The notes under the pieces: generated by a model
The model's database searches: none
Told to the model about the DNA's origin: nothing
The model's input: the letters and a program-made list of their open reading frames with translations, nothing else
Part shown: one piece after another, positions 24,700-61,470 of the stretch
How positions within the stretch are numbered: position 1 is the first letter of the stretch
Layout: each line of letters starts with the position of its first letter
Source of the DNA: Icerya purchasi
Taxonomy: Eukaryota; Arthropoda; Insecta; Hemiptera; Monophlebidae
Length of the DNA: 64,000 bases
Direction: 5' to 3'
Assembly (NCBI GenBank): GCA_039619475.1
Contig: CM077115.1
Span: 413,920,557 to 413,984,556 of the forward strand
Position numbers and translations under genes: made by a program

Positions 24700-24705
24700 G
24701 ATATC
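24700..24705. repeat. putative left target-site duplication GATATC
   Basis: GATATC immediately precedes the AGTAGTATA terminus and recurs right after the other terminus (40,211-40,216). Because GATATC is its own reverse complement, it could equally be the outermost 6 bp of the inverted repeat; outside it, the flanks (TTGTCA and GCCTAC) do not match. Confidence 0.55.
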
Positions 24706-24759
24706 AGTAGTATAAAAATGGGGGTTCTGGGCCAGTGGGTGAGGGGGGTGAGGGGGGAA

Positions 24760-24773
24760 GTGTGACGTCACAC
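24760..24773. promoter_or_regulatory. CRE-type palindrome, left arm
   Basis: GTGTGACGTCACAC is a perfect 14-bp palindrome containing TGACGTCA, the consensus CREB/ATF site, between the G-rich terminus and the tandem repeats. Binding is inferred only; it could also be a recognition site for the element's own protein. Confidence 0.5.
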
Positions 24774-25050
24774 ACCAACTACCCCTATTCTGGTGCAAAG
24801 GTCACCCAACTACCCTTATTTTTAAGTAAAATTAACCCAACTACCTTTTAAAAATGCCAAAAAGTCACCCAACTACCCCTACCCCAGCCCAAAGGTCACC
24901 CAACTACCCCTATCTTTAAGCAGAATTTAACCCAAATACCTTTAAAAGCAGTGAAAACTAACCCAACTACCCCGCAAATGCCAACAAGCCACTCAGCTAC
25001 CCCTATTCTAGCCCAAAGGTCACCCAACTACCCCCTATTCCCACCCCACC
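24774..25050. repeat. 31-bp subterminal tandem repeat, left arm
   Basis: About nine units of a 30-32 bp motif, consensus around CCAACTACCCCTATTCTG then GCNCAAAGGTCA. Units vary; the outermost is the best preserved. Arrays next to the termini inside long inverted repeats are typical of Foldback-like elements and may serve as transposase-binding or replication sites. Confidence 0.9.
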
Positions 25051-25600
25051 CCCAAAAACTACCCCTTCATCTGATTTAATCTAGACCTCTTAAAACAACC
25101 AAACTACCCTCTTTTTAGTATTCCACCCCTATTTTCCACCCCCTCCCCCTTAAAAACTACCCCTTGATCTATTTTAATCCAGAGCTCTAAAAGTAACCAA
25201 ATCACCCTCTTCCCAGTACCCCACCCCTAATTTACACCCCCTCACCCTCAAAAAACCACTCCTTCATCTATTTTAATCCAGAGCCCTAAATTAACTCATC
25301 TACCTTTTCCAGGATAATCAACCCCACTGTTTTCAACCCCTCCTTGTCAAAAATACCCATAATTCTCTTGGAACAGTTTAATATCTAATCCACCCCTCAC
25401 CCTACAGTCTCTCATTACCATTGTAACCCAACCTATACTATAACCCAATCACTACCCATCACCCCACAGTTTATCATTGGTAATATAACACAACCAATAC
25501 TATAACCTAACCACCACCAAACACCCCCACATACCCACTAAGCACTATCCTCTACACCCCATAGCCTGCTCAACCATAGCACAAAATGTGATGAATATTA
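25051..25600. repeat. C-rich degenerate repeat zone, left arm
   Basis: Continues the subterminal region with longer degenerate units built on CCAC/ACCCC and ACTACCCCTTCATCT-like segments (for example near 25,060, 25,150 and 25,250, spaced about 95-100 bp). The strong C bias on the plus strand is mirrored as G bias in the right arm. No coding sequence. Confidence 0.7.
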
Positions 25601-25685
25601 GTGTGATAGATAGTACCAATACATACACAGCATCACACATATACACTAAAATTGACTGTTACAGGCCATTTAATTATCCTTTCCA

Positions 25686-25956
25686 TAGTGGCATATCTAA
25701 CTCCCCAATGCATTTCTCCAGATTTTCCATTGATGCTTTTATAGAACGTTTCAGTTTGATTGTGTCCAAAACATTGACCAGACGTCTGCCCAGCATGGTC
25801 ACATAGCTACCCTATATAGGAAAAATATCTTAGGCACCTTAGTAACCACCTCTTTTAAGCTGGTCGGAGTAAGGCTCTTCTGCAACCATTTACTAATCAC
25901 CACTTCATAGGCCATCACCTCAGTTTCAGTCGCTATTACACTGACATGTAGTAAAC
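25686..25956 (-). pseudogene. decayed repeat-module protein copy, left arm (copy a)
   Basis: On the minus strand, frames interrupted by stops give ATETEVMAYEVVISKW, then a segment ending SLKEVVTKV, aligning with the start of the better-preserved module at 28,779-29,066 ('TEAEAMDDDMVIGK' and 'LASLKGPVKETLKD'). The end of this copy is disrupted. The module's function is unknown; it is predicted helical and charged. The mirror copy lies at 38,930-39,200 (plus). Confidence 0.4.
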
Positions 25957-26125
25957 ATTTTTCCTCATTTTTTAACTAATTATGGCCAATTTACCACTAT
26001 TTCTCACCATTTTCTTACATTTTAGCATTTTTACACTGTTTTTGTCAACATTTGCTATTTCTCACTATTTTCCTATGTTTTTAGCACCTTTCACACAACT
26101 ACACTAATCTACATCCTTAATGACC

Positions 26126-26596
26126 TTCTCTAGGTTTCCTTTCAGCCCCTCCACCTCCACCAATCACATCTCCAGCCTAGAGAATGCCACCGTTGTAGAA
26201 ATGTTTTATGTATTCCACTACAGTCTCCAGTTGCCTATGGGCTGTATCGGCTGAGTCGGTCATACCTTTGAGTGCCTGATCTAGCGCATCAAACCCAGCT
26301 AGGTTTTATCTTTGGTCATCTAATGCTGGAGGATCCACTTGGCAGCTTCCACATGGTAATCGCGCAGACGCTTGAAAAGAGCATCCTGCAGAGCGATCAC
26401 ATCCAAGACATCAACCAGATGTCTGCCCAGCATGGTCACATAGCTACCCTATGCAGGGAGAATATCTTTAAATGCCTTGGCAACCACCCATTTTAAGCTG
26501 GTACAGGCAAGGGCTCCGCGCGACCATTTTCCAATCACCACTTCATCATCCACTACCTCAGCTTTAGTCACTACTGCATTGACATATAGTAAACAT
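26126..26596 (-). pseudogene. decayed repeat-module protein copy, left arm (copy b)
   Basis: The minus strand reads VTKAEVVDDEVVIGKW and a downstream SLKWVVAKAFKDIL, then in another frame SYVTMLGRHLVDVLDVI, and later LDQALKGMTDSAD with an ETV..IKH tail. The order matches copy c, so these are paralogous repeats of one protein module. A stop and frame changes break it. The mirror copy is at 38,290-38,760 (plus). Confidence 0.5.
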
Positions 26597-26650
26597 TTTT
26601 TCCCCCCAAAGTATTTGTAATTAATGTTGAAGTCCAAGTCATATGATTAG

Positions 26651-26923
26651 AAGGATGATAGTAATGATAGTAACAATGGTGGTGGTGATGGTGATGTTAA
26701 TGACAGCAATGTTGACAATAATGCTAGTAATGATGATAACAATGCAGACAATTATAATGAAGGTGATTGTAGTAATAACAATGCCAGTGATGCTAGTGCT
26801 GATGACAACAACATTGACAATGATAGCACTGCTGATGACAGTAACACTGACAATGATGCTTATGATAATGACAACACTAATGATGGTGATGATAATAGCA
26901 AGGCTAGTGGTGTGGGCTGTTAG
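26651..26923 (+). pseudogene. Ser/Asn/Asp/Gly-rich open frame, left arm
   Basis: From 26,651 a 90-codon frame, ending at TAG (26,921-26,923), reads only low-complexity acidic/polar sequence of the type DDSNDSNNGGGDGD and NASDASADDNN. It arises from GAT/AAT/AGT codon repeats. There is no start codon in this frame. Similar stretches occur at 27,040-27,140 and 33,106-33,363, also mirrored in the right arm at 37,963-38,235. It could be the acidic tail of a decayed protein or simply trinucleotide-repeat DNA; I cannot tell. Confidence 0.35.
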
Positions 26924-27299
26924 AAGGTTATAGGAATGGTGGTGGTGTCTTTGACATCATGCATTATTGTATATAGTATCAATCAGCATCTTTGTGATAG
27001 TAGTGTATACAGCAGTGTGTATTAGTGTATATGATGCCTTTGTGATGATGCTGGCAATGATGGTGATGATGGTGGTAGTAAAAATGCCAGTGATGCTTAT
27101 GACAGTAACATTGACTATGATGATGGTGATGGCAGCAGTGTGCATTAGTGTATATAGTGTCTGTGTTATGGTTAGTAGTGATGGTATAAACAGTGGTATG
27201 TATTAGTGTATATAGTGTCTTTGTGATAGTGTTGGTGCTGCTTGTGTCATCAGAGGGTGTAGGGGGGGTCGCTGGGGCACAGCAGGAATGTTAGGCGAT

Positions 27300-28540
27300 A
27301 GTATACAGTTGGAATTTCCCAAATAACAAATTGCTTATGCTTTTTGTGTGCGCCCACATCCTGCACAGATGGAAGCAATGTACATGTTGGTTTGCTAGCA
27401 ATTGGTCACTAATTACTAGTCAATTTCTCATTATATCTCATCAGTTTCTTGTGTATTAGCACTTTTTACACTATTTTTCACCAATTTGTGCTATTTCGCA
27501 TCATTTCTTATGTTTGAACACTTCTTACACATTTTGTTTGATATATTCACCATTTTCTCATATTGTAACACCTTTTACAGGGCTCTCTCAATTTTTACCA
27601 TCTTTCATCAATAATTCCATTAATTTGACTCTCCAAATCATCGTTCTACCTTATAAGCTAATTTTTACTATACCTCTTGTGCTAATCCTTTAAGTTCCTC
27701 AATGTTATATATTTTTGCTATAGTATCCACACAAACATTTTTTTTTTTGTCTTATGTAATTGTATAAATCCAGTTAGGGCCTGCATTATTTCAAGTATAT
27801 CTCCACTCTGAAATGTGTTGGCGCATCTTTTTGTGTTAAAAACAAATCCATAACATGTTTGTCTGCTATTAATTGCTGTATTGATGCTACATTTGATTGC
27901 CTAGTCAATATAATACTTTCCTAACCAGTTCCTTCTGTTTATGCTTGTGTACACTTATGCATTACTATTGACCGTCTACCATTAAACTTTTCCAACCCCA
28001 TACCAAATCTGCTATTTTTTGCATCTGCATGCTTCAGGGATGTGCTCCGCTATATCTATAACCAATCTGTGCTAATATAACTTACTAACCTATGCTACAC
28101 TGATTTTGGGTGTTTGTGTATGTGTATGTGTATGTGCTTTTGCATGTGCACATGTGCATGTGCCTGCATGTGAGTATGTGTATGCATGTAACTATGTGTG
28201 AATGGGCATGCATGTGTTAATTACATTGTCGTCACCATCGTTGTTATCACAATTATTATAAAAATTGTAAAATGTACTTGTCAGTGCAATAATCAAAATT
28301 GACCTTGGTACATCCCATCAGGCACACCACCACAGCTAAAATATGCATTAGTGTTAGAGTTAACCTGGGATGTGAGCAGTAGATAAATAGTTGTGTCAGA
28401 AATGCCCACTAGATATACAGTTTTTCTTATTAAATTTTAAGAAAATGTATTTTTTTCTATAAGTTGGGAATAGTAGTCTTTTGAATAGTACACAAGACGT
28501 CCAAGTATTGGTTATAATGAAAAGTTCCAACAGCAGTAAC
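27300..28540. other. noncoding part of left arm
   Basis: No gene supported. It contains scattered related motifs (CTATTTC..CATTTTC and TTTAGCACTTTT) shared with several other places in the arms, and an alternating purine/pyrimidine (TG/CA)-rich stretch at 28,095-28,210. Part of it (27,340-27,670) has a diverged relative in the spacer at 31,700-32,020. Confidence 0.5.
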
Positions 28541-29081
28541 CTTTTTTTTGCAGATTTTTTTTTTCTTCCAACTCTGCAAGAACCATTTGTAATTTAGCGT
28601 CTAACTCTTTATGGTATCAATCTTCTTCTGTGATAACCTTTCAGACTCTAGACTTCTACTAGGCACATCTCCAGCATAGTGATCACAGCGGCTGTAGTAT
28701 GTTTCAGGGCGTCCATGGCAGTCTTCATGTGAATATGGGGTTTATTGACTGAATCGGTCACATCTTTAAGCACCTGGTCTAGTGCATCAAGCCAGGCTTT
28801 TTCTTCAACCACCCGTTCCTCGAGGGCCTCCGTTTGATATCTTCAATATGGCTATTGCGATAATGTTTGGTATGAGCATCCTTTGGATCGATCACGTCCG
28901 AGACATTTACTAGACGCTTGCCCAGTACACTTATGTAGCTGGTCTGTATATTGATGTTATCTTTAAGCGTCTCCTTCACTGGTCCTTTTAAGCTAGCGAG
29001 AGCAAGGGACACCTGCATCTGCTTGCCAATCACCATATCGTCGTCCATTGCCTCAGCTTCAGTCACCGCTGCACCGACATG
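28541..29081 (-). pseudogene. best-preserved repeat-module protein copy, left arm (copy c)
   Basis: The minus frame 29,066-28,779 encodes 95 residues: VIGK motif near residue 12, a helical segment LASLKGPVKETLKD, then LGKRLVNVSDVI and DAHTKHYRNSHIEDIK. A frameshift follows; another frame continues with DKAWLDALDQVLKDVTDSV and a C-terminal coiled-coil-like KELDAKLQMVLAELEEK near 28,560-28,610. Length and composition suggest an alpha-helical structural protein built of repeated modules of about 200-250 residues. I recognise no family. The mirror copy at 35,805-36,345 differs by one Lys/Thr codon. Confidence 0.5.
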
Positions 29082-29325
29082 CAGTAAATGTTTTCTTCCT
29101 TTACCATTTTCTTACACTTAAACACTATTACACCATTTTCCTCATTTTTAACTAATTATAGCCAATTTTCCGCTATTTCTCACCCTCTCCTCACATTTTA
29201 GCACTTTTTATGATGTTTTCATCAATTTTTGCTATTTCTCGCCATTTTCCTATGTTTTAAGTGCTTTTCATAAAATTTTCCACATTTTTTCACCATTTGT
29301 GTTAGTTTTTCCTTCCAACTCTTTA

Positions 29326-29661
29326 CTACGTCCATGTTCGTCCACAATAACCTTCTACAGGTTTCCTTTCAGCCTCTCCACATCTACTAGCCTCATCTAC
29401 AGCTTAGCAATCGTTGCGGCTGTAGAACACTTTAGGCCTTCTATGGCGGTCTCCAGTTGTCTATACGGGTTTCCTTGTTAAATCGGGCATAGCTTTGAGC
29501 GCCAGGTCTAGCCCATAGAGCCAGGTTTTGTCTTCAGTCGCCCAACTGCTCGAGGTACCATTTGATATCGTCAGTGTAACTATCATGTTGCCATTTAGTA
29601 AGAGCGTTCTGAGGAAAGATCATATCTGAGACATTTACTAGACGTTTGCAGAAAGAACTTG
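29326..29661 (-). pseudogene. decayed repeat-module protein copy, left arm (copy d)
   Basis: The minus strand from about 29,650 gives KRLVNVSDMI, then ALTKWQHDSYTDDIKWYLEQL, followed by a stop and frame change, then a tail with LKGNL and KELE in other frames. The order matches the second half of copy c, directly upstream of it in the coding direction, so copies c and d were once tandem modules. The mirror copy is at 35,225-35,560 (plus). Confidence 0.45.
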
Positions 29662-30949
29662 ATTTTATACATTATTATAATTGTGTGAGCGGTGCATGTG
29701 GTAAATTATGCGATAATTATAAGACATATTAAAATATTCAAAGTTATAAACATATACTGTATACCCTGAAGCAGAATAAAATAGTATTAAGCGGTAGAGA
29801 CGATAAATTCGCTTATGGAAATTGTACATATAATGAATTCTGTGAAAAGTTTAATATTGTTTTAGCCGAACTAAGAGTGTGTATATTGGAGAAGAATAGG
29901 TATATTGCATGAGTGCGCGGAACTGTGTATTATTATATTAAGTGTGACATTAAGCATTATGTATTGTATTTTACTGTGTAATAAAATTCGCTACATCTGA
30001 GAATATGTAGGCTTAAAATAGTTTGCATAAACTTAGTTATGGTGTATTGAGATAGCGTCATTTCTAATTAAAATGTATTTGCAGTTAGATTGGGAGATCA
30101 TTTTTCAATATATTTTGGTGTTTTCTGCCTAAAATTGAAGCGATTTTAGCCTAAAATGGGGTATTTTGCACTATAATTGCTGTTTTGTGCCTAAAATGAC
30201 TGTATTTTTGGGCGAGATGAAGTTTATCTCCTAAAATTTGATGTTTTTGTCTAAATGTAGTTATTTTAGTCCTAAATGGAATAATTTTCATGTAAAGAGG
30301 AGTGCGTAACCTGAGCTGTATACTTCTTGTTACAGCATTCTATTCATTGTGGAATTATGTTTGAACAGATTGGTGACTGGTTGTGGGAGGTTTACAGAAC
30401 TTTCTGATGTATTGATTATAGTATAATGGTTGTTGTGTGTTAGTGAGAAGATGTATATTATAGAATTCCTAGGAGTGTGATTGCGTCTGTAGAACAATAA
30501 ACTGGGATAAGCGATGAAGTGTACCCCATCAGAGGGGCGGGGTGAGTGATACTTGATAATTAACTTGGTCTTTGTGCACATTGCTGGGTGGTTATAATAT
30601 GCCTGGCCAAAATGAGTTGTTGTATACCATTCTTGTTATTCATTAAACATACACACTGAAAGGTGTGATAGGCCCATCAACATCTAGATTCCTACAATCA
30701 TCTCAATTTTATAATTGTAATCTGCACTAAACAAGTGTATATTACTATGACTGCATCAAGTCTGTTATGGCTGTTAATGTTGGGAGGGCAGATATTGCAC
30801 CATGCATTAAAAGATGAATACAGGCATGTACATACCTCTGCAGGCTCACACAGCATCATAATTAACATTGTTACATCACATGTATACATATGCGTACTAT
30901 ATAAAACATGCATAAGCATGTCATGGGCGTGCACATTACTATGTTGGAA
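29662..30949. other. inner part of left arm, noncoding
   Basis: No gene supported. It includes a degenerate tandem zone at 30,110-30,300 built on CCTAAAATG/TTTTAG units about 30 bp apart, and a block at 30,440-30,740 with a diverged copy in the spacer (32,050-32,340). Confidence 0.5.
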
Positions 30950-32759
30950 GGTTTTGGCACTTCATTCACTGAAAATTTCATTAAGTCTTACATAATCAGA
31001 TAGTAGACCCAGGATATGATAAAAGTACCCTCATAAAAGAGTATACATTGAGCGCATTCTTTGCAGCAATTAAACAGGCTGTATATTACTACATGTTAGT
31101 GGCCTAAACAGTTTTATTAGTCATCCACTATTTTAAATTAATTAGATCAATCTAAGCTCATTTCCAGAAATATTGTAAAGTGTATATGCCATTGTCATCA
31201 TATCGTCATCGGCATCACCATTGTTGTAACTATTACAAACAGTGTAAAGCGTCCTTCTGACGCACTACCATTCATACAACCATCTTTGATGAAGAAACTT
31301 TTACTGTTATCATCTCATGATGAGCGTATTATCACACATGGAAAATGAGCATTGACATGTTGAGAAATGTATTTTTTAGATCTTTTACACTATTTTCATC
31401 AAGGTTTGCTATTTCCCACCATTTTCTTATGTTTTTTAGCACTTTTCATGCAATTTTCCTTGTTTTTTCAACATTTTTGTCAGGTTTGCACTAATTCAGC
31501 TCTGTCAACCATTATTATAATTTAAAAGTGGCTCCTCTGTTTAATTGTTAGCACTTTTCTTGTATAGATCCTATGATTTCCTGGATGTTGTATATTTTTA
31601 TTATAATATCCACATCAACGTTTTGTCTTGTTTAATGATGCGATATTAGTTTCCGTCTCTGTGTTAATCATAAATCTCATCGCTCTGAGGTCTAATGGTT
31701 CCTCTTTCCATTCACAGATGGAATCCATATACATGTTGGTTTGCTAGCAAGTTGCCACTAATTACAATCAATTTCCTGGTATTTCTTACCAGTTTCTTGT
31801 GTTTTAGTACTTTTTATGCTACTTTTTCACCAATTTGTGCTATTTCACACCTTTCTTATGTTTGAACACCTATTGTGCAGTTTTTCAGTAATTTTCACAA
31901 TTCCTCAGTATTTTCTTATGCTGTAACACCTTGTATACAGTCTTCACCAAATTTTACCATCATTCATCAATAATTTCACTAATTCGGTCCTCCAAACCAT
32001 TGTTTTACCTTATAAGCGATTGTCTATTTAATTTTTTATGATTAAGAAAGAACATAATGTATATTATAGAATTTTCGGAAGTGTGATTGAGTCTGCAGAA
32101 TAATAAACACGGGTAAGAGGTGGAGCATGCTCCATCAAGTGGGGTAAGTGATGCTTAGTAATTGACCTGGTTATTATGCACATTGCAAAGCAGTTATAAT
32201 ATGTTTGGCAAAAATTAGCCGTTGTATGTCATTCTTGTTATACATTAAACATTTACACTGAGGAAGATGATTAGCTTGTCAACATCGGGATCCCTGCAAT
32301 TATTTTGATTGTATAATTGTAATCTGCACTGAGCAAGGGGAATTTCATAAAGACATATAATTAGATAGTAGACACAGCACATGACAAAAGCAGCTCATAA
32401 AAGAGTGTACAATGAACACATCCTTTGCAGCAATTCAACAAGTTGTATATTACTACATGTTAGTGACCTAATTAGTTTATCAATCATCCACAATGATTAC
32501 TTGTATGCAAAGCAGAACAGTAGAAACATATAGGCTAAAACACAAATAAGCCTTGTGAGGGCTAGTACTATGCTTATTTTGGTGTCATATATGGGAATGC
32601 CTATGAGACCTATAAGCTAAGACAGATCTCCTCATATACACTATCATCACAATTATCAACAACACAAATATATAGGCATACAAAGCAATTTGGCAGAGGT
32701 TAGCATGACATATCAGCTTTGGTATATTAGTGGTGTAATAAAGCACACCCTGATGTATA

Positions 32760-32850
32760 CACACCCACACATATGTGTACACACACACACACACACACAC
32801 ACACATTCATATGAATACATACACACATACACATGCAAGCACACACATAT
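32760..32850. repeat. (CA)n-rich microsatellite in the spacer
   Basis: A pure (AC)n core at about 32,778-32,806 with flanking CA/TA-rich degenerate sequence. It has Z-DNA-forming potential like 28,095-28,210 in the left arm. Confidence 0.85.
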
Positions 32851-33105
32851 CAAGTTTTGAGCATTGTCATTGTTGCTGTCTCTGTCATTATCATCAGTAT
32901 CATCATCGTCATCATCAGTGGGTACAAAGTTCATAATGCAAAGTAATTTTAATTTTTTCAACAGTTTTACTCACAAATAAATTCATTTAAACAATTTTAT
33001 TTTTAAAAATTATTACCACTTGACCGACTTTACCTGAATCCCCGAAATGAAATAAACACCTTTTCCTATATTTTTTAACACTTTTCACACAATTTTTGAC
33101 TATTG

Positions 33106-33363
33106 GAGTAATGATGGTAGTAACAATGCCAGTGATGCTAGTGCTGATAACAACATTGCCAATGAGATAATGATAGTAATGATGTTGATGCTGATTACAG
33201 AAATGTTGAGGATGATGCTAGTAATGATGATAACAATGTTGAAAATTATGATGAGGGTGATGATAGTAATAAAAACGCCAGTGATGCTGATGTTGATGGC
33301 AATAGCACTGACAATGGTGGTAGTAAAAATGCTAGTAATGATGCCAACAATGCTGGCAATTAA
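33106..33363 (+). pseudogene. Ser/Asn/Asp-rich frame in the spacer
   Basis: Codon-repeat DNA (GAT, AAT, AGT, GCT) reads SNNASDASADNN, then after a frame change NASNDDNNVENYDEGDD and ends NAGN with stop TAA at 33,361-33,363. It is a diverged relative of 26,651-26,923, with the same phrase NASDASAD or NASDAD preserved. Protein coding is uncertain. Confidence 0.3.
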
Positions 33364-33408
33364 TACAAAGGTGATGTGGTAATGGTAATGATAAATGTTA
33401 TAACCTAA

Positions 33409-33790
33409 ATGGCTCTAAAAATAGCCAAAACCCACCCAACTACCCCTATCCCAAGGACAAATTTAACCCAAATACCTATAAAATCTTTCATTTTTAACCC
33501 AACTACCCCTAAAATTTGCCCTACAGCCACTACTTATGTAATGCACATTATTTTCCACCTCCAACCAAAAACTGTCCCTACATTTCTTTTAATTCAGATC
33601 TCTAAGGTTAACCCAACTACCCCTTTCAGGACAATCCACCACCTATTTCCCATCACTCCTAGCTGAAAACTTTCCCTATGGTCTATTATTAGTATTGTAA
33701 CCCATCAAATACCTGCTACCCCCACATACTCACTAAGCACTATCCTCTACCCCCTTCAACCCACAGCCTGCCTGACAATACTATAGTGGG
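33409..33790 (+). repeat. diverged internal copy of the subterminal region
   Basis: CACCCAACTACCCCTATCCC units recur, followed by CCCCCACATACTCACTAAGCACTATCCTCTAC, matching the order seen at about 24,900-25,560 in the left arm but clearly diverged. This places terminus-type sequence in direct orientation immediately before the right arm. Confidence 0.75.
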
Positions 33791-35224
33791 TATCCCGCAC
33801 AATAAGATATTGTAGGTTGCATCTGGTGGATCGGACAGTACGTAATATAGAGGCCAATTCGTTTCACACCTTTGCTCTCATAGATTTCTCCACTATACAT
33901 TCAATGGCAAATATTACATGTATGTTCCTGGGAAAATTCCAACATAGTAATGTGCACGCCCATGACATGCTTATGCATGTTTTATATAGTACGCATATGT
34001 ATACATGTGATGTAACAATGTTAATTATGATGCTGTGTGAGCCTGCAGAGGTATGTACATGCCTGTATTCATCTTTTAATGCATGGTGCAATATCTGCCC
34101 TCCCAACATTAACAGCCATAACAGACTTGATGCAGTCATAGTAATATACACTTGTTTAGTGCAGATTACAATTATAAAATTGAGATGATTGTAGGAATCT
34201 AGATGTTGATGGGCCTATCACACCTTTCAGTGTGTATGTTTAATGAATAACAAGAATGGTATACAACAACTCATTTTGGCCAGGCATATTATAACCACCC
34301 AGCAATGTGCACAAAGACCAAGTTAATTATCAAGTATCACTCACCCCGCCCCTCTGATGGGGTACACTTCATCGCTTATCCCAGTTTATTGTTCTACAGA
34401 CGCAATCACACTCCTAGGAATTCTATAATATACATCTTCTCACTAACACACAACAACCATTATACTATAATCAATACATCAGAAAGTTCTGTAAACCTCC
34501 CACAACCAGTCACCAATCTGTTCAAACATAATTCCACAATGAATAGAATGCTGTAACAAGAAGTATACAGCTCAGGTTACGCACTCCTCTTTACATGAAA
34601 ATTATTCCATTTAGGACTAAAATAACTACATTTAGACAAAAACATCAAATTTTAGGAGATAAACTTCATCTCGCCCAAAAATACAGTCATTTTAGGCACA
34701 AAACAGCAATTATAGTGCAAAATACCCCATTTTAGGCTAAAATCGCTTCAATTTTAGGCAGAAAACACCAAAATATATTGAAAAATGATCTCCCAATCTA
34801 ACTGCAAATACATTTTAATTAGAAATGACGCTATCTCAATACACCATAACTAAGTTTATGCAAACTATTTTAAGCCTACATATTCTCAGATGTAGCGAAT
34901 TTTATTACACAGTAAAATACAATACATAATGCTTAATGTCACACTTAATATAATAATACACAGTTCCGCGCACTCATGCAATATACCTATTCTTCTCCAA
35001 TATACACACTCTTAGTTCGGCTAAAACAATATTAAACTTTTCACAGAATTCATTATATGTACAATTTCCATAAGCGAATTTATCGTCTCTACCGCTTAAT
35101 ACTATTTTATTCTGCTTCAGGGTATACAGTATATGTTTATAACTTTGAATATTTTAATATGTCTTATAATTATCGCATAATTTACCACATGCACCGCTCA
35201 CACAATTATAATAATGTATAAAAT

Positions 35225-36345
35225 CAAGTTCTTTCTGCAAACGTCTAGTAAATGTCTCAGATATGATCTTTCCTCAGAACGCTCTTACTAAATGGCAACA
35301 TGATAGTTACACTGACGATATCAAATGGTACCTCGAGCAGTTGGGCGACTGAAGACAAAACCTGGCTCTATGGGCTAGACCTGGCGCTCAAAGCTATGCC
35401 CGATTTAACAAGGAAACCCGTATAGACAACTGGAGACCGCCATAGAAGGCCTAAAGTGTTCTACAGCCGCAACGATTGCTAAGCTGTAGATGAGGCTAGT
35501 AGATGTGGAGAGGCTGAAAGGAAACCTGTAGAAGGTTATTGTGGACGAACATGGACGTAGTAAAGAGTTGGAAGGAAAAACTAACACAAATGGTGAAAAA
35601 ATGTGGAAAATTTTATGAAAAGCACTTAAAACATAGGAAAATGGCGAGAAATAGCAAAAATTGATGAAAACATCATAAAAAGTGCTAAAATGTGAGGAGA
35701 GGGTGAGAAATAGCGGAAAATTGGCTATAATTAGTTAAAAATGAGGAAAATGGTGTAATAGTGTTTAAGTGTAAGAAAATGGTAAAGGAAGAAAACATTT
35801 ACTGCATGTCGGTGCAGCGGTGACTGAAGCTGAGGCAATGGACGACGATATGGTGATTGGCAAGCAGATGCAGGTGTCCCTTGCTCTCGCTAGCTTAAAA
35901 GGACCAGTGAAGGAGACGCTTAAAGATAACATCAATATACAGACCAGCTACATAAGTGTACTGGGCAAGCGTCTAGTAAATGTCTCGGACGTGATCGATC
36001 CAAAGGATGCTCATACCAAACATTATCGCAATAGCCATATTGAAGATATCAAACGGAGGCCCTCGAGGAACGGGTGGTTGAAGACAAAGCCTGGCTTGAT
36101 GCACTAGACCAGGTGCTTAAAGATGTGACCGATTCAGTCAATAAACCCCATATTCACATGAAGACTGCCATGGACGCCCTGAAACATACTACAGCCGCTG
36201 TGATCACTATGCTGGAGATGTGCCTAGTAGAAGTCTAGAGTCTGAAAGGTTATCACAGAAGAAGATTGATACCATAAAGAGTTAGACGCTAAATTACAAA
36301 TGGTTCTTGCAGAGTTGGAAGAAAAAAAAAATCTGCAAAAAAAAG
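35225..36345 (+). pseudogene. repeat-module copies c and d, right arm
   Basis: Mirror of 28,541-29,661. On the plus strand copy d (35,225-35,560) precedes copy c (35,805-36,345). Between them a Lys-rich stretch of related short units (GTGCTAAAA, ATGGTGAGAAATAGC) encodes nothing continuous. The 95-residue frame at 35,820-36,107 is the longest preserved part. See the left-arm entries for motifs. Confidence 0.5.
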
Positions 36346-37962
36346 GTTACTGCTGTTGGAACTTTTCATTATAACCAATACTTGGACGTCTTGTGTACTA
36401 TTCAAAAGACTACTATTCCCAACTTATAGAAAAAAATACATTTTCTTAAAATTTAATAAGAAAAACTGTATATCTAGTGGGCATTTCTGACACAACTATT
36501 TATCTACTGCTCACATCCCAGGTTAACTCTAACACTAATGCATATTTTAGCTGTGGTGGTGTGCCTGATGGGATGTACCAAGGTCAATTTTGATTATTGC
36601 ACTGACAAGTACATTTTACAATTTTTATAATAATTGTGATAACAACGATGGTGACGACAATGTAATTAACACATGCATGCCCATTCACACATAGTTACAT
36701 GCATACACATACTCACATGCAGGCACATGCACATGTGCACATGCAAAAGCACATACACATACACATACACAAACACCCAAAATCAGTGTAGCATAGGTTA
36801 GTAAGTTATATTAGCACAGATTGGTTATAGATATAGCGGAGCACATCCCTGAAGCATGCAGATGCAAAAAATAGCAGATTTGGTATGGGGTTGGAAAAGT
36901 TTAATGGTAGACGGTCAATAGTAATGCATAAGTGTACACAAGCATAAACAGAAGGAACTGGTTAGGAAAGTATTATATTGACTAGGCAATCAAATGTAGC
37001 ATCAATACAGCAATTAATAGCAGACAAACATGTTATGGATTTGTTTTTAACACAAAAAGATGCGCCAACACATTTCAGAGTGGAGATATACTTGAAATAA
37101 TGCAGGCCCTAACTGGATTTATACAATTACATAAGACAAAAAAAAAAATGTTTGTGTGGATACTATAGCAAAAATATATAACATTGAGGAACTTAAAGGA
37201 TTAGCACAAGAGGTATAGTAAAAATTAGCTTATAAGGTAGAACGATGATTTGGAGAGTCAAATTAATGGAATTATTGATGAAAGATGGTAAAAATTGAGA
37301 GAGCCCTGTAAAAGGTGTTACAATATGAGAAAATGGTGAATATATCAAACAAAATGTGTAAGAAGTGTTCAAACATAAGAAATGATGCGAAATAGCACAA
37401 ATTGGTGAAAAATAGTGTAAAAAGTGCTAATACACAAGAAACTGATGAGATATAATGAGAAATTGACTAGTAATTAGTGACCAATTGCTAGCAAACCAAC
37501 ATGTACATTGCTTCCATCTGTGCAGGATGTGGGCGCACACAAAAAGCATAAGCAATTTGTTATTTGGGAAATTCCAACTGTATACTATCGCCTAACATTC
37601 CTGCTGTGCCCCAGCGACCCCCCCTACACCCTCTGATGACACAAGCAGCACCAACACTATCACAAAGACACTATATACACTAATACATACCACTGTTTAT
37701 ACCATCACTACTAACCATAACACAGACACTATATACACTAATGCACACTGCTGCCATCACCATCATCATAGTCAATGTTACTGTCATAAGCATCACTGGC
37801 ATTTTTACTACCACCATCATCACCATCATTGCCAGCATCATCACAAAGGCATCATATACACTAATACACACTGCTGTATACACTACTATCACAAAGATGC
37901 TGATTGATACTATATACAATAATGCATGATGTCAAAGACACCACCACCATTCCTATAACCTT

Positions 37963-38235
37963 CTAACAGCCCACACCACTAGCCTTGCTATTATCATCAC
38001 CATCATTAGTGTTGTCATTATCATAAGCATCATTGTCAGTGTTACTGTCATCAGCAGTGCTATCATTGTCAATGTTGTTGTCATCAGCACTAGCATCACT
38101 GGCATTGTTATTACTACAATCACCTTCATTATAATTGTCTGCATTGTTATCATCATTACTAGCATTATTGTCAACATTGCTGTCATTAACATCACCATCA
38201 CCACCACCATTGTTACTATCATTACTATCATCCTT
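37963..38235 (-). pseudogene. Ser/Asn/Asp/Gly-rich open frame, right arm
   Basis: Exact mirror of the left-arm frame at 26,651-26,923. Confidence 0.35.
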
Positions 38236-38289
38236 CTAATCATATGACTTGGACTTCAACATTAATTACAAATACTTTGGGGGGAAAAA

Positions 38290-39200
38290 ATGTTTACTAT
38301 ATGTCAATGCAGTAGTGACTAAAGCTGAGGTAGTGGATGATGAAGTGGTGATTGGAAAATGGTCGCGCGGAGCCCTTGCCTGTACCAGCTTAAAATGGGT
38401 GGTTGCCAAGGCATTTAAAGATATTCTCCCTGCATAGGGTAGCTATGTGACCATGCTGGGCAGACATCTGGTTGATGTCTTGGATGTGATCGCTCTGCAG
38501 GATGCTCTTTTCAAGCGTCTGCGCGATTACCATGTGGAAGCTGCCAAGTGGATCCTCCAGCATTAGATGACCAAAGATAAAACCTAGCTGGGTTTGATGC
38601 GCTAGATCAGGCACTCAAAGGTATGACCGACTCAGCCGATACAGCCCATAGGCAACTGGAGACTGTAGTGGAATACATAAAACATTTCTACAACGGTGGC
38701 ATTCTCTAGGCTGGAGATGTGATTGGTGGAGGTGGAGGGGCTGAAAGGAAACCTAGAGAAGGTCATTAAGGATGTAGATTAGTGTAGTTGTGTGAAAGGT
38801 GCTAAAAACATAGGAAAATAGTGAGAAATAGCAAATGTTGACAAAAACAGTGTAAAAATGCTAAAATGTAAGAAAATGGTGAGAAATAGTGGTAAATTGG
38901 CCATAATTAGTTAAAAAATGAGGAAAAATGTTTACTACATGTCAGTGTAATAGCGACTGAAACTGAGGTGATGGCCTATGAAGTGGTGATTAGTAAATGG
39001 TTGCAGAAGAGCCTTACTCCGACCAGCTTAAAAGAGGTGGTTACTAAGGTGCCTAAGATATTTTTCCTATATAGGGTAGCTATGTGACCATGCTGGGCAG
39101 ACGTCTGGTCAATGTTTTGGACACAATCAAACTGAAACGTTCTATAAAAGCATCAATGGAAAATCTGGAGAAATGCATTGGGGAGTTAGATATGCCACTA
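38290..39200 (+). pseudogene. repeat-module copies a and b, right arm
   Basis: Mirror of 25,686-26,596. Copy b is at 38,290-38,760 and copy a at 38,930-39,200, on the plus strand, separated by the same Lys-rich AAAATGGTGAGAAATAG-type units that separate c and d. Stops and frame changes as in the left arm. Confidence 0.45.
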
Positions 39201-39835
39201 TGGAAAGGATAATTAAATGGCCTGTAACAGTCAATTTTAGTGTATATGTGTGATGCTGTGTATGTATTGGTACTATCTATCACACTAATATTCATCACAT
39301 TTTGTGCTATGGTTGAGCAGGCTATGGGGTGTAGAGGATAGTGCTTAGTGGGTATGTGGGGGTGTTTGGTGGTGGTTAGGTTATAGTATTGGTTGTGTTA
39401 TATTACCAATGATAAACTGTGGGGTGATGGGTAGTGATTGGGTTATAGTATAGGTTGGGTTACAATGGTAATGAGAGACTGTAGGGTGAGGGGTGGATTA
39501 GATATTAAACTGTTCCAAGAGAATTATGGGTATTTTTGACAAGGAGGGGTTGAAAACAGTGGGGTTGATTATCCTGGAAAAGGTAGATGAGTTAATTTAG
39601 GGCTCTGGATTAAAATAGATGAAGGAGTGGTTTTTTGAGGGTGAGGGGGTGTAAATTAGGGGTGGGGTACTGGGAAGAGGGTGATTTGGTTACTTTTAGA
39701 GCTCTGGATTAAAATAGATCAAGGGGTAGTTTTTAAGGGGGAGGGGGTGGAAAATAGGGGTGGAATACTAAAAAGAGGGTAGTTTGGTTGTTTTAAGAGG
39801 TCTAGATTAAATCAGATGAAGGGGTAGTTTTTGGG

Positions 39836-40143
39836 GGTGGGGTGGGAATAGGGGGTAGTTGGGTGACCTTTGGGCTAGAATAGGGGTAGCTGAGTGGCTT
39901 GTTGGCATTTGCGGGGTAGTTGGGTTAGTTTTCACTGCTTTTAAAGGTATTTGGGTTAAATTCTGCTTAAAGATAGGGGTAGTTGGGTGACCTTTGGGCT
40001 GGGGTAGGGGTAGTTGGGTGACTTTTTGGCATTTTTAAAAGGTAGTTGGGTTAATTTTACTTAAAAATAAGGGTAGTTGGGTGACCTTTGCACCAGAATA
40101 GGGGTAGTTGGGTGACCTTTGCACCAGAATAGGGGTAGTTGGG
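39836..40143. repeat. 31-bp subterminal tandem repeat, right arm
   Basis: Reverse complement of 24,774-25,050 with one extra unit (about ten in all). The two outermost units are identical to each other, indicating recent expansion or contraction. Confidence 0.9.
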
Positions 40144-40157
40144 GTGTGACGTCACAC
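40144..40157. promoter_or_regulatory. CRE-type palindrome, right arm
   Basis: GTGTGACGTCACAC, mirror of 24,760-24,773. Confidence 0.5.
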
Positions 40158-40210
40158 TTCCCCCTCACCCCCCTCACCCACTGGCCCAGAACCCCCATTT
40201 TTATACTACT

Positions 40211-40216
40211 GATATC
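40211..40216. repeat. putative right target-site duplication GATATC
   Basis: Follows the TATACTACT terminus directly; see the left copy for the ambiguity caused by GATATC being palindromic. Confidence 0.55.
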
Positions 40217-42149: not shown

Positions 42150-43290
42150 GTGTGCGCTTTCAGGTGACAATTTCACTATTCATTTGGTACATTGGAAGTG
42201 CGGTGCGCTGTCCGTACCCAGGGGATCTCATTCACGCTCAATGTATGAAAGATGGTCGGCTTTCCCAGCTGGCGAATCATCGCGAACACGTCATTTTTAT
42301 GCGTCATCCAGTAATACGGATCGATTTCCGCAAAGACAGGTTATTCTCGATCATCCATAAACTGCTTGTCCTCTATGTTTCCGCGTGTCACATTCTTCAG
42401 GTTCGCGTTCGCCTTGAATGAATAATACATACTCTCTGTGAGACGCATTTTCATCGCCACGTATAAAACGGGTTTGACTCCACGTCGATCGGTACATCGA
42501 ATCTCGCTGTTGGCCATCATGTACAGTGTGACATTTTCCATCACAAACTCGCGAGGTTCGCGCTCAATTAAACTGATGGAAAGTAGAGCTCTGAGCGACA
42601 ATTGACGTTCACACCGGGAGCGACTTGTCCTCTCACGTCGGGTCCTTGGAGATGGGCTCGATCATAGAGATTCACGGGACGAAGGATCGCCATCATCTTT
42701 GGAAACGGTCGCCAAAGCTGGTGAGTTGTCATACTCGCGATACAGCGACTCGTCGATGCGAATGCCGTTCATGCGGTATAATGGTTTCGAAAGTCAGCTT
42801 TTCACCATCGATTTTTTCACACACCCGTTGAGGTAGGTCGATTTGTAAATGAGGTGGCTCTTGGGGTGCACATTGAACACGCGATCGTCATCGAACTGAC
42901 GTGGAAGCTCTGAAACCATTACAGGAATGTTTATTATCACTTATCCGACGATGCTTTTCGAACCGCGTTTTTTATATCGCCGTCTAACCGGAGACGATCG
43001 CAGATGGGGCACGAAACGCCGAATCGGTTCTGACGGAAGCAGCGATCGAACCCGACGTCGGTAGCAAGACCTTCGTCGACAAACACTTCCTGCGGTGGCT
43101 GATAAGTCGAATCCTCTCTTTTTTTGTCAGTTTCATTGGCAGCCTTTTGCGTTTACGTTTCTCTATTTCCTTCTTTTCTTTCGAACGAGCGTCGCGCTTT
43201 CGCAGTTTGTTAGACTCTAGCTTCGAACTGTCATGTCGTTGACGCAATTCGCATTTGCGTTCGGTGGCAGTTTTTGGTTTTTGTGTATTG
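42150..43290 (-). pseudogene. decayed Helitron (Rep N-terminal region) fragment
   Basis: This GC-richer block reads on the minus strand, in shifting frames: at about 43,130-43,245 a basic RKRDARSKEKK stretch; at about 43,000-43,060 RFGVSCPICDRL; at 42,860-42,890 FNVHPKSHL; at 42,465-42,545 a segment with MANSEIRCTDRRGVKPV; and at 42,185-42,310 YYWMTHKNDVFAMIRQLG, then KPTIFHTLSVNEI. The order (basic region, Cys pair with CDRL, the DUF6570-like region with 'sTDRRGvKPV', then the Helitron_like_N opening 'P.YW...k.d.fAMIRQLG.PTiF.TLS') fits the N-terminal half of a Helitron Rep-helicase. It stops before the HUH nuclease motif and the helicase, so it is truncated, and at least two frameshifts break it. 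Confidence 0.7.
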
Positions 43291-56127: not shown

Positions 56128-57835
56128 TTATAGATATCTGATTATTCCGCTAGTTCTGATAAATTGTGTTATGGATAAAATTGCATCGGGGGAATTCTCA
56201 AGAATGTTGGTGACTGTTTTGTTATTAATTGAAGGGGGCCGGTGAGGTGATAATGCTGGACAGTCGCATAGTATATGAGGAGTTGAGGGAGCAACATCTT
56301 GGCCACAGAAAGGACAATTCGTAGGAGAGGGGTTTCTTTGCAAAATAAAATTATGCGACATGGCCGTATGGCCTATGCGCAAGCGGCTAAGTGCACAGAA
56401 ATCTCTGCGGGAAATGTTTTTTTCTGGCCACCATGGTTCCGTTGAGGGTTTAATTAACCTCGAGAAAGTCTGACACGAGGACCAATGGGTTTTCCATAAG
56501 GACGTGAGATTATTGAAGATTATGTTCGAGAGATAAGGTGGAGGTGGACTGTTACTAGGCGAGGGGCAATATATTTCTGCTCGGGCGGATGTATCGACGC
56601 GTTCATTTCCAGGAATCCCTGCATGGCTGGGCGCCCACAGAAAGGATACGGAGCACTGTCTCTTAATAAGTTCGTATAATACCTGCTGGGTTCGAATTGC
56701 TACAGGATGTTTGGTGAGGGGATTAGAAATTGTCAATAAGGCCGCGGATGAATCAGATACCAGCAGGGCTTTCTGTGAAGTAGGCTCTGTAGAAAGAAAA
56801 TATTCCAAACAGAAAAATACTCCATATATATTTCAGCATCCAGTACCGAGCAATTGTCATTCAGTCGAATGCTTCGAATCACGTCGCAGACTTCAAAGGA
56901 ACAGGCGGTTGGGGAAGAAGTAGCCTCTGGGGTAGCCTTGGCAGCATCCGTGTAGAAAAAGAGGCGGTCGGGGTATTTTTGCATTGTTGCTGCTGTCAAC
57001 TGAACGATATTCGGGTGCAGGGGTTTATTATACTTCGTCGGGGAAAAGTTAACATCAATGTTTAAAGGGGCCCACGGCGGAATCATGATGTTAGGAGCTA
57101 GGTTAGGGAAAGGGATTACGCTCACGTTGTGCTGCGATAGGAGAGCCAGGATTTCTGGGAGAGGGTCATTAGGGAACTCTGGGGTGTTGGGGAGGTCATT
57201 TGTGTCAATAGGACAGGCGCGTTTCTCACGGTGGTAATAATAGGTTCGGAAATACTTTAGTGGGGGAGTGCCTAACAAGGCACACAAACTTACAGACGGG
57301 GAAGTTCTATGTGCGCCAAGTATCGTGCGGAGCGCCGTGTGGTGTATTGAATCAAGGGATTTAAGTAAAGAGGGACTGGCTGACGCATACGCCTGGGACC
57401 CGTAGTTTATTCTGGAGATGACTAAGGATTTGTATATGGAGAAGAGAGTTTTCGGAGGTACATTATACTTTGTGTTTGATACATATTTAAGAATAGATAG
57501 GAATTTATGACATTTAACTTTAAGATTGGATATGTGGGATCGCCAAGTTAGCTTTTGATCGAACAGTAGTCCAAGGAAAGTAGCAGTAGGGTGGAAATGA
57601 AGTGAGGAATTTTCTAGATTGAGGCGGATGCTGGAAGAGTTTTGACGTCCCCTATAGAAATCAACACAGATAGACATAGATGGAGAAAACACAAGACCAT
57701 TATTGTTACACCAGGATTGTAGTTTTGAAATAGTTTTTTGTAGGATTTTTTGAGCATTTGCTGGAAAACTAGCAGACAGGGAAATGTTCAAGTCGTCAAA
57801 GTAGGAGCCGAGCGTTTACAATTACAATCATTTAT
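56128..57835 (-). pseudogene. LINE ORF2 part 2: RT C-terminus, RNase H, Cys/His motif
   Basis: The frame from the YFDD box runs to 56,733 with the RT thumb region (LGLLFDQKLTW, INYGSQAYASAS, LGAHRTSPSVSLCALLGTPPLKY) and the start of RNase H (FYTDAAK, catalytic Asp; LDAEIY, catalytic Glu). Near 56,790-56,808 the frame shifts; the rest continues as LVSDSSAAL (third acidic residue), WAPSHAGIPGNERVD (fourth) and a C-terminal CPFCGQDVAPSTPHILCDCP Cys/His motif, stopping at 56,128. All four RNase H residues are present but split between frames. Apparent starts at 57,791 and 56,808 are artefacts of the shifts. Confidence 0.85.
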
Positions 57836-59815
57836 ATCGTTAATATAAAAAATAAACAAGGTTGCACTAAGGGCAGATCCTTGTGGTAAGCCATTCTCAG
57901 TTTGAATGGTGCTCGATGTTGACGAACCAATCTTAACATGGAACGTTCTGTTTGTTAAAAAATTATTCAGATACTTGGCCATGTTTCCACTTATACCAGC
58001 TGTTGTCAGCTTGGATAAGAGGCCGTATCGCCATACTCTGTCGAACGCCTTTTCTATATCGAAAAAGACGGAGTATACATGTTGGCGTCTGTGAAATGCT
58101 GTTAATATTTGCCTTTGTAGGCTCAGCAGATGATTAACTGCAGTACGCTTCTTACGCTCTCCTTCTTGTGACGAGGATAGGAGATTATTCTGTTCAAGGA
58201 AGAAAAGGAGACGCCGATTAACCATTTTTTCCAGCGTTTTTACGAGGACACTTATGAGGGATATAGGCCTGTAGTTTTGTGGAAAAAGAGGATCTTTATT
58301 TTGCTTCAGAATAGGAATAACAACTGCTAATTTCCATGGCTCAGGGATCGATCCGGAGAACCATATTTGGTTATAGATATGTAAGAGGAAGTTTTTCGCT
58401 GACGGAGGTAAGTGTTTTAACATATAAGGATGGATGGAATCGGGCCCAGGCGCGCTGTTTGCAGTATGGTACTGGAGTTGATAGTCTAGTTCGGAAATGG
58501 TGAAATGGCAATTGTAGGAAAGTGAGGAGTCAGAGATGATAGTTATTGGTTGTTGTTCCGTGGAATATTTCTTTAAAGAGAAAGCAGACGAATATGACGA
58601 TGAGGATGACTCCATTGCAAAATGATTCGCAAAAGCATTTGCGACTTCCAACGGATCAGATAACATGGAACCATTCTGGTTTATCGAAAAGGAAGGGGTC
58701 GCACGATTAATACCGTTCAGTGCCTTAATTTTGTGCCAAATATTGTGACTAGAAGTATTTATGGAGATTGAATGCATAAATTTCTGCCAAGATTCCTGTT
58801 TTTTGCGCCTAATGAGGCTCCTCGCAGCTGCACGGCGTTTTTTAAATTCGATCAAATCAGGATATAAGCCTGTTGATTTAAACTTCCTAAGGGCATGTTT
58901 ACGTTGGCGTATGGCTGTTCCTATTTCGAGGCACCACCATGGGACCCGTCGAGATCTGTTTGTTGGGACAAACCTAGGAATGGATGCTAGAGCAGCATTC
59001 GTAATAGCGTCGATAAAGGAGTTGATGTTCTCTGATAAAGATTCGGATGGCTCGCTGGGAACGTTTACTTTAACTGAAAAAATATCCCAATTCGCCTTGT
59101 GGAATAGAAATTGAGGCTTAGGTGGGGGGGTTTGGGTAGGGAGGGCTTTGGACGGGCATATGAGTATAGGAAAATGGTCGCTAGAGCATAAGTCCTGTAG
59201 CACAAAAGTGCTCAAGTGAGGGAAGATGGAAGTGGAAACAAGTTGTAGGTCGATTGTTGAGAATGTATTATGGGACAGATTGAAATGGGTGTAACCTGGG
59301 GACGGAAGCAGTATCATATCGTTATCTAGGACCAGTTTATTGATGACAGAGCCATGTCTGTTTTCCAGTGTTGCTCCCCACAAAGGTGAGTGGGCATTAA
59401 AATCACCGAGTAATATTAGTGGCGGGCTGACCTGTGATAGTACTGACTGAAACATATCTGCAGTAATTATATAATTCGGAGGCACATAGCAGTTACATAG
59501 AGTTATCGGGGTGGCAGATATCTGAGGAAGATGGACGGCCACTGCAATCATTTGTAAGGGGGTACTAAAATTCAACTGTGTTGCTGGGACAGAGGAGTGG
59601 ACCATAATGGTAACCCCTCCATTTGCTCTAAACCCTTGATCATTGCTGAAAGTGAATAGGGAGTAGTTTTGTAGGGCTGGGTTATCTGTGGGCTTCAAAT
59701 GAGTTTCCTGTAGACATACCACAGCAGGGAAGTGATTTGCAATAAGCAGCTTTAATTCAGCAAGTTGAGGGAAGAATCCTCGACAGTTCCACTGCAGGAT
59801 AATGTTACGAACCAT
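57788..59815 (-). pseudogene. LINE ORF2 part 1: endonuclease and reverse transcriptase
   Basis: I choose ATG 59,815 (MVRNIILQWNCRG); the frame is open two codons further up. Apurinic-type endonuclease: QWNCRG (residue about 8), LQETHLKP with catalytic Glu, LLGDFNAHSPLWG, TIDLQLVS and SSDHFPIL (Asp-His). Reverse transcriptase: NYRPISLISV (about residue 510), FFDIEKAFDRVW with the first catalytic Asp, GLPQGSALSATLF. The frame ends at 57,788 just after YINDIND. The catalytic YFDD is present at about 57,797-57,808 in the next frame, so one base has been lost or gained between about 57,809 and 57,835. All endonuclease residues appear intact. Confidence 0.88.
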
Positions 59816-59840
59816 GACCACTATTAGCTTTCAAATATGT

Positions 59841-61422: not shown

Positions 61423-61470
61423 AAATATTTACCTGGAAAGATAAAACTTTATCCCCCCCCCCCCTGAATG

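What the first reader, a model, noticed from the sequence alone, without database searches (positions are those of the whole stretch)
24706..40210. A 15.5-kb palindromic element with 6.2-kb near-identical arms and no recognisable transposition gene
Two arms of 6,244 and 6,274 bp are inverted around a 2,987-bp non-palindromic spacer. The outer ends have defined termini and border GATATC on both sides. Known long-TIR elements usually have TIRs of 0.1-1 kb (Polintons) or are much shorter overall (Foldback, Galileo). Size, possible 6-bp duplication and AG...CT ends suggest a Polinton/Maverick derivative, but none of its core genes can be seen. This could be a new non-autonomous giant element class.
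Basis: partly seen in the sequence, partly recalled or inferred. Interest (0 to 1): 0.9.

Follow-up and report, generated by a model that had tools for sequence, protein, structure and literature searches.

The report
Giant palindromic, gene-less Polinton family
A scale-insect genome carries at least 23 copies of a mobile DNA, typically about 18.6 kilobases long, whose two halves mirror each other and in which no intact gene was recognised; it is likely a folded-back remnant of a Polinton, a virus-like transposon, and would need intact Polintons to move.

Summary
The palindrome is real: arms of 6,244 and 6,274 bp, 99.97% identical over 6,179 bp, ends (AGT)2...(ACT)2, flanked by duplicated GATATC. 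The assembly matches Icerya purchasi. It belongs to a family: 23 inverted terminus pairs, median 18.6 kb, 17 of 23 at 17.8-19.0 kb (lower bound); 20 of 21 checked have an exact 6-bp target duplication. Four of ten fetched copies are palindromes down to a 13-15 nt loop; the window copy is internally deleted. No Pfam domain was found, but each arm keeps a relic of a Polinton polymerase (PolB) C-terminus. Another Polinton lineage in this genome has one-sided (ordinary) and symmetric elements sharing the same ends; one, 19.8 kb, has two inverted PolBs and turns back just before the capsid gene at a 5-nt microhomology. Best reading: snap-back derivatives of Polintons, likely moved in trans and kept near Polinton length. 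In 10 of 10 copies tested the two arms are each other's closest relatives. This family's own helper was not found.

The parts
24700..24705 (.). target-site duplication GATATC, left copy
24706..24711 (+). (AGT)2 end motif, start of the element
   Evidence: motif as reported for Mavericks, passages
24706..30949 (+). left arm, paired part (6,244 bp)
24775..25040 (+). subterminal tandem repeats (31- and 94-bp units), left
29646..29879 (+). PolB C-terminal relic, left arm (one stop inside), reading toward the centre
   Evidence: tblastn E 2e-8 (PolB of L101) and 8e-9 (L107); 23 of 111 foreign PolBs hit the same place weakly
30950..33389 (+). inner left arm, unpaired because its right-arm partner is deleted
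   Evidence: alignment to copy E4
33390..33785 (-). part of the family's central segment, in the orientation opposite to that in E4
33786..33936 (.). about 150 bp with no match to E4 or E5 at the deletion joint
33937..40210 (-). right arm (6,274 bp)
35007..35240 (-). PolB C-terminal relic, right arm
39846..40143 (-). subterminal tandem repeats, right
40205..40210 (+). (ACT)2 end motif, end of the element
40211..40216 (.). target-site duplication GATATC, right copy

Best explanation
This is a likely non-autonomous Polinton/Maverick: a multi-copy palindromic insertion with 6-bp target duplications, (AGT)2 ends and a PolB relic in each arm, which likely arose by snap-back copying of the PolB half of a Polinton and is predicted to be replicated and integrated in trans by intact Polintons. 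Shown: the palindrome, the duplications, the end motif, the relic, the copy number, and in the same genome another Polinton lineage with both one-sided and symmetric members. Inferred, step by step: (1) during strand-displacement copying from one end, a 3' end stops inside the element, folds back on a few complementary bases and copies its own strand, so the other half (capsid, integrase) is lost and both ends become the same end; (2) the palindrome, now with the same origin at both ends, is copied and inserted by enzymes supplied by other Polintons; (3) single strands of it fold into long hairpins whose arms pair, which would re-equalise the arms; (4) its length stays near that of a Polinton, perhaps because the DNA is packaged.
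For: Exact 6-bp duplications in 20 of 21 copies, AGTAGT at both ends of all 21. PolB C-terminus relic in both window arms, E 8e-9 and 2e-8, reading toward the centre as PolB does in the PolB palindrome; reversed proteins gave nothing below 0.19; 23 of 111 foreign PolBs hit the same place, reversed 0 of 111. PolB palindrome C1:475533444-475553252: 19,809 bp, duplication GGCGAG, LINE frame restored when flanks are joined, PolB regions identical over 4,233 bp. Its ends resemble this family's (score 14, best of 2,000 shuffles 10). Compared with an ordinary element (PolB, DJR capsid, rve integrase) it turns back just before the capsid gene, AAATC pairing GATTT over a 53-nt loop. Of 19 terminus pairs in that lineage 7 carry the PolB-side signature at both ends, 6 at one, 6 at neither. 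Six convergent PolB pairs within 10 kb, about 0.07 pairs expected by chance. Arms of one copy are sisters in 10 of 10 copies. 17 of 23 copies measure 17.8-19.0 kb.
Against: No intact Polinton with exactly this family's ends was found (40 of 106 and 40 of 156 candidates scored), so the helper is inferred. The similarity of ends to the other lineage is partial. A third PolB of this genome (L103) hits the relic only at E 0.002, and no foreign PolB reaches 1e-3; one hits elsewhere in the window at 0.004. Copies share their loop or central joint, so the palindrome is inherited and not re-made at each move. In the PolB palindrome the outer 133 bp differ at 6 sites while 4,233 bp are identical, which looks like patchy conversion. 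Interiors of six of the seven symmetric elements were not read. Nothing shows replication, movement or packaging today.
Confidence: 0.72

Rival explanations
1. A palindromic Polinton derivative whose arms are kept alike by gene conversion between arms in the chromosome, with no role for replication hairpins.
For: Central joints are inherited; the outer 250 bp are less alike than the rest (0.52% against 0.03-0.12%); the PolB palindrome is identical over 4,233 bp but differs at 6 of 133 outer bases.
Against: The outer 250 bp also differ most between copies (0.91%), so the pattern does not decide. One-arm deletions in E0, E1, E2 and E7 were not converted back. It does not explain the origin of the palindrome.
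Confidence: 0.2
2. The palindromes arise by host repair: a broken end of Polinton DNA folds back and host polymerase fills in, rather than by Polinton replication.
For: Fold-back priming on short inverted repeats is established in yeast (PMC10622511, passages); the joint here has a 5-nt microhomology.
Against: Several independent centres in PolB elements (loops of 10, 53 and 197 nt) with Polinton ends and a 6-bp duplication in the one followed to its ends fit events on free Polinton DNA; host repair of such DNA is not excluded.
Confidence: 0.15
3. Assembly artefact from fold-back reads.
For: One PolB locus (C1:427.2 Mb) holds an N gap between two identical 801-bp centres.
Against: Different flanks and 6-bp duplications (20 of 21 exact); centres shared by copies at different sites; HiFi assembly (PMC11183206, part 1 of 3 read).
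Confidence: 0.03
4. A foldback element of another superfamily with 6-bp duplications (IS3EU- or Dada-like, recalled) that picked up a PolB piece.
For: Subterminal repeats and large inverted repeats occur in other superfamilies (recalled); this family's helper was not found.
Against: (AGT)2 ends with 6-bp duplications, end similarity to a PolB element, and PolB palindromes of the same build and size. No transposase domain was found.
Confidence: 0.05

Closest known systems
Polinton / Maverick elements
   Same: 6-bp duplications, (AGT)2//(ACT)2 ends, length near that of Polintons, PolB relic
   Different: No intact gene recognised; the inverted repeats make up the whole element instead of short terminal repeats (402 +/- 276 bp is given in a passage on vertebrate Mavericks)
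AAV snapback (defective interfering) genomes
   Same: Self-complementary genomes of one end of a virus, symmetric or asymmetric, depending on helper functions (PMC8235507, passages)
   Different: Parvovirus, seen in particles; here chromosomal insertions of Polinton descent, particles unknown
Foldback / Galileo elements
   Same: Large inverted repeats with tandem repeats near the ends (recalled)
   Different: Recalled as shorter and with other duplication lengths; here 6 bp and a PolB relic
Fold-back inverted duplications in yeast
   Same: Short inverted repeats prime fold-back synthesis (PMC10622511, passages)
   Different: Chromosome ends after breaks, not a mobile family

Membership tests
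Polinton/Maverick (as non-autonomous derivative) | 6-bp target-site duplication | tested here: met
   20 of 21 copies exact, the other 5 of 6
Polinton/Maverick (as non-autonomous derivative) | (AGT)2//(ACT)2 end motif | tested here: met
   both ends of 21 of 21 copies; motif from passages of PMC8097293
Polinton/Maverick (as non-autonomous derivative) | sequence descent from a Polinton | tested here: met
   PolB C-terminal relic in both window arms; 8 of 11 copies in the cut listing, E3, E5 and E9 by a weak DNA match (E 0.017)
Polinton/Maverick (as non-autonomous derivative) | an intact Polinton with the same ends as helper | tested here: inconclusive
   none seen for this family among scored candidates; shared ends seen only in a second lineage
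Autonomous Polinton | intact PolB, integrase, ATPase, protease, capsid genes | tested here: not met
   six-frame Pfam scans of arm and spacer: nothing over cut-off
Autonomous Polinton | terminal repeats of about 0.1-1 kb | tested here: not met
   arms of 6.2 kb here, about 8.7-9.4 kb in fuller copies
Snapback (defective interfering) genome | self-complementary copy of one end of a helper genome | tested here: inconclusive
   shown for a PolB palindrome against an ordinary element; for the window family only through the relic
Snapback (defective interfering) genome | packaged and interfering | not testable with these tools
   no particle or RNA data
MITE | short (under about 0.6 kb, recalled) | tested here: not met
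   10.7-19.5 kb in 23 pairs
Foldback / Galileo | its own duplication length and transposase | tested here: not met
   6-bp duplications; no transposase domain; the Galileo features are recalled

The most novel reading that the evidence does not exclude
These are germline-resident satellites of Polinton viruses: snap-back genomes that gave up every gene yet keep full genome length because they travel in Polinton capsids, and that act as heritable interfering particles (and, through hairpin RNA, a possible source of silencing) against the Polintons they parasitise.
Probability: 0.3. Interest if true: 0.93.

Novelty: new variant of a known kind. Interest (0 to 1): 0.82.

Why it matters
Non-autonomous DNA transposons usually shrink (recalled); these have no recognisable gene left and stay near full Polinton length as a doubled half. 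If that length is held by packaging, they are sequence evidence that Polintons form particles in animals, which the Maverick paper states have not been observed (PMC8097293 abstract, as listed). Paired ordinary and folded-back elements also give a natural record of strand-displacement replication turning back, and show that 18-kb palindromes can spread in an animal chromosome.

Tried and rejected
Rfam scan of the window: no family. No tRNA gene. Exact 16-mer of the end in viral contigs: 48 matches, which I judged chance from a rough estimate of my own (no call) and did not follow. Homologues of the ORF next to the capsid gene: none at E 1e-3. PDB search with PolB: none. Where arm differences lie as a test of conversion against replication: inconclusive. 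Literature listings for palindromic, foldback, snapback or head-to-head Polintons (11 of 11, 9 of 9, 12 of 22, 12 of 22, 3 of 3, 15 of 103 and 8 of 59 papers shown) had no title or abstract start describing them; one candidate looked at by passages was not about this. The library is open access only. An earlier count said the relic was seen in all 11 copies; that listing was cut at 25 rows and shows 8 of 11.
Full report
WHAT IS THERE. The window copy runs from 24706 to 40210. Its arms (24706-30949 and 33937-40210) align over 6,179 bp at 99.968%, and the outer 74 bp at 98.6%; they differ by one base, one G-run length and one 31-bp repeat unit, plus one mismatch beside that gap that depends on the alignment. 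Chance is excluded by length alone. Six-frame Pfam scans of the left arm and spacer, stops read as X, gave no family over its cut-off; the three weak hits had E 0.31-0.65.

HOST. The window lies on contig 1 of a 1,103,370,081-bp assembly in 41 contigs. Icerya purchasi was published at 1,103.38 Mb with scaffold N50 601.66 Mb, two chromosomes and HiFi reads (PMC11183206, part 1 of 3 read); contig 1 is 601,656,059 bp. I take this as the host.

A FAMILY. DNA searches with the end found many copies (156 candidates, 40 scored; 106 candidates, 40 scored), so counts are lower bounds. From both lists I paired 23 copies with inverted ends; other ends in the lists stayed unpaired. Lengths are 10.7 to 19.5 kb, median 18,598 bp, 17 of 23 within 17.8-19.0 kb. 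Flanks of 21 of the 23 were read: 20 have an exact 6-bp duplication, all different, and one matches at 5 of 6; AGTAGT begins both ends of all 21.

FULL COPIES. Ten further copies were fetched, chosen because both their ends stood in the first list. E3, E5, E9 and E10 are palindromes along the whole 18.6-18.8 kb, with loops of 13, 13, 13 and 15 nt. E4, E6 and E8 have arms of about 8.6-8.7 kb and a central segment of about 0.7 kb, the tip of one arm whose partner is missing; the three share the same joint. E1 and E7 have further gaps in one arm. E2 has lost most of one arm. The window copy has one full arm and a right arm cut at arm position 6276. So the palindrome is inherited from copy to copy, and single arms are then lost piecemeal.

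ARMS OF ONE COPY ARE SISTERS. In a tree of the outer 5.6 kb (E2 dropped because one arm is nearly gone; last 120 columns trimmed), left and right arm of the same copy group together in 10 of 10 copies, local support 0.63-1.00. Differences within a copy are 0.018-0.144%, to the nearest other copy 0.089-1.15%; for E1 the two figures are close (0.144 and 0.165%). The outer 250 bp are less alike within copies (0.52%) but also differ most between copies (0.91%), so the pattern does not tell replication from conversion.

DESCENT FROM POLINTONS. tblastn with PolB proteins of this genome finds 83-88 residues of the PolB C-terminus in each arm (29646-29879 and 35240-35007; E 8e-9 and 2e-8, one stop inside), reading toward the centre; a third PolB (L103) gives only 0.002; reversed proteins gave nothing below 0.19. 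The listing, cut at 25 rows, shows 8 of 11 copies; E3, E5 and E9 show a weak DNA match at that place (76% over 71 bp, E 0.017). Of 111 PolB relatives found elsewhere (insects and corals among the named), 23 hit the same place, each weakly (best E 0.002), and 0 of 111 reversed ones do; one forward protein hits another place in the window at 0.004. The end motif (AGT)2//(ACT)2 and 6-bp duplications are those of Mavericks (PMC8097293, passages).

POLINTONS IN THE SAME GENOME. PF03175 finds 638 candidates, 91 scored; I listed 89 loci. Six neighbouring pairs converge within 10 kb, where about 0.07 pairs of any orientation are expected; one divergent pair lies between two of them. That run, at C1:427.2 Mb, may be an assembly duplicate, since two identical centres flank an N gap. 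Centres at three loci are palindromic to loops of 10, 53 (between the 5-bp joint arms; 101 for a stem without mismatch) and 197 nt. One element was followed to its ends: C1:475533444-475553252, 19,809 bp, duplication GGCGAG, two PolB regions identical over 4,233 bp, inserted in a LINE whose frame is restored by joining the flanks; its outer 133 bp differ at 6 sites between arms. It begins AGTAGTGTCG...CCTGGCACAGTGGG, similar to the window family's AGTAGTATAA...CTGGGCCAGTGGG (alignment score 14; best of 2,000 shuffles 10).

AN ORDINARY RELATIVE AND THE FOLD-BACK POINT. The element at C2:121154541-121175291 (20,751 bp, ends) has PolB near one end, then on the other strand a double-jelly-roll capsid stretch (PF21738, E 4.7e-27, 114 residues read) and an integrase (PF00665, E 1.3e-12; a chromodomain hit stays below its cut-off). 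Stretches between were not read, the longest about 4.9 kb. Its own target duplication was not checked. It matches the palindrome up to ...AAAAATC (96.8% over the last 379 columns); there the palindrome turns back, and AAATC can pair with GATTT 53 nt earlier. This is what a 3' end folding back on itself would leave.

ORDINARY AND FOLDED FORMS SHARE ENDS. A search with the PolB-side end (91 candidates, 40 scored, listing cut) gave 41 terminus rows: 19 pairs and 3 unpaired. Seven pairs bear the PolB-side subterminal signature at both ends (13.8-20.9 kb; six of seven 18.9-20.9 kb), six at one end (18.8-24.9 kb), six at neither (0.6-32.7 kb). PolB lies on the signature side in all five one-sided elements that show one. 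Of the seven symmetric ones only one shows PolB in that capped listing, as two copies; the other six may be gene-poor folded forms like the window family, but their symmetry is seen only to about 0.8 kb from each end.

HOW IT LIKELY WORKS. Snap-back copying of the PolB half gives a duplex with the same origin at both ends; Polinton polymerase and integrase from elsewhere would copy and insert it; hairpins of single strands would re-pair the arms. The first step is supported by the joint in the PolB palindrome, the others are inference. AAV snapback genomes are the nearest working analogue (PMC8235507, passages), and fold-back priming on short repeats is known from yeast (PMC10622511, passages). 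Length close to that of Polintons fits packaging, an idea raised for the narrow size range of vertebrate Mavericks (PMC8097293, passage), but nothing here shows particles.

VERDICT. No description of such forms was seen in the listings named under Tried and rejected, within an open-access library only.

Noticed in passing
window 56128-61428 (-): LINE remains: ORFs with endonuclease and reverse transcriptase domains (PF14529, PF03372, PF00078) and a weak RNase H match below its cut-off.
   Followed up: partly
L113-L115 (C1:427206060-427219569): Two identical 801-bp palindromic centres (10-nt loop) of a PolB element on either side of an N gap: a real array or an assembly duplication.
   Followed up: partly
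G000 C2:167076590-167097969: A 21.4-kb terminus pair with the PolB-side signature at neither end; it might be a fold-back of the integrase side.
   Followed up: no
window 42582-42812 (+): Weak match to an N-terminal part of PolB (P0008, E 0.004) outside the element; may be chance or another Polinton scrap.
   Followed up: no
G000 C2:53547593-53548897: A PolB locus about 10 kb beyond the right end of copy E9.
   Followed up: no
window 27364-27658 and 31713-32017; 30451-30735 and 32057-32337: Older direct repeats (76-79% alike) inside an arm, signs of earlier internal duplications.
   Followed up: no
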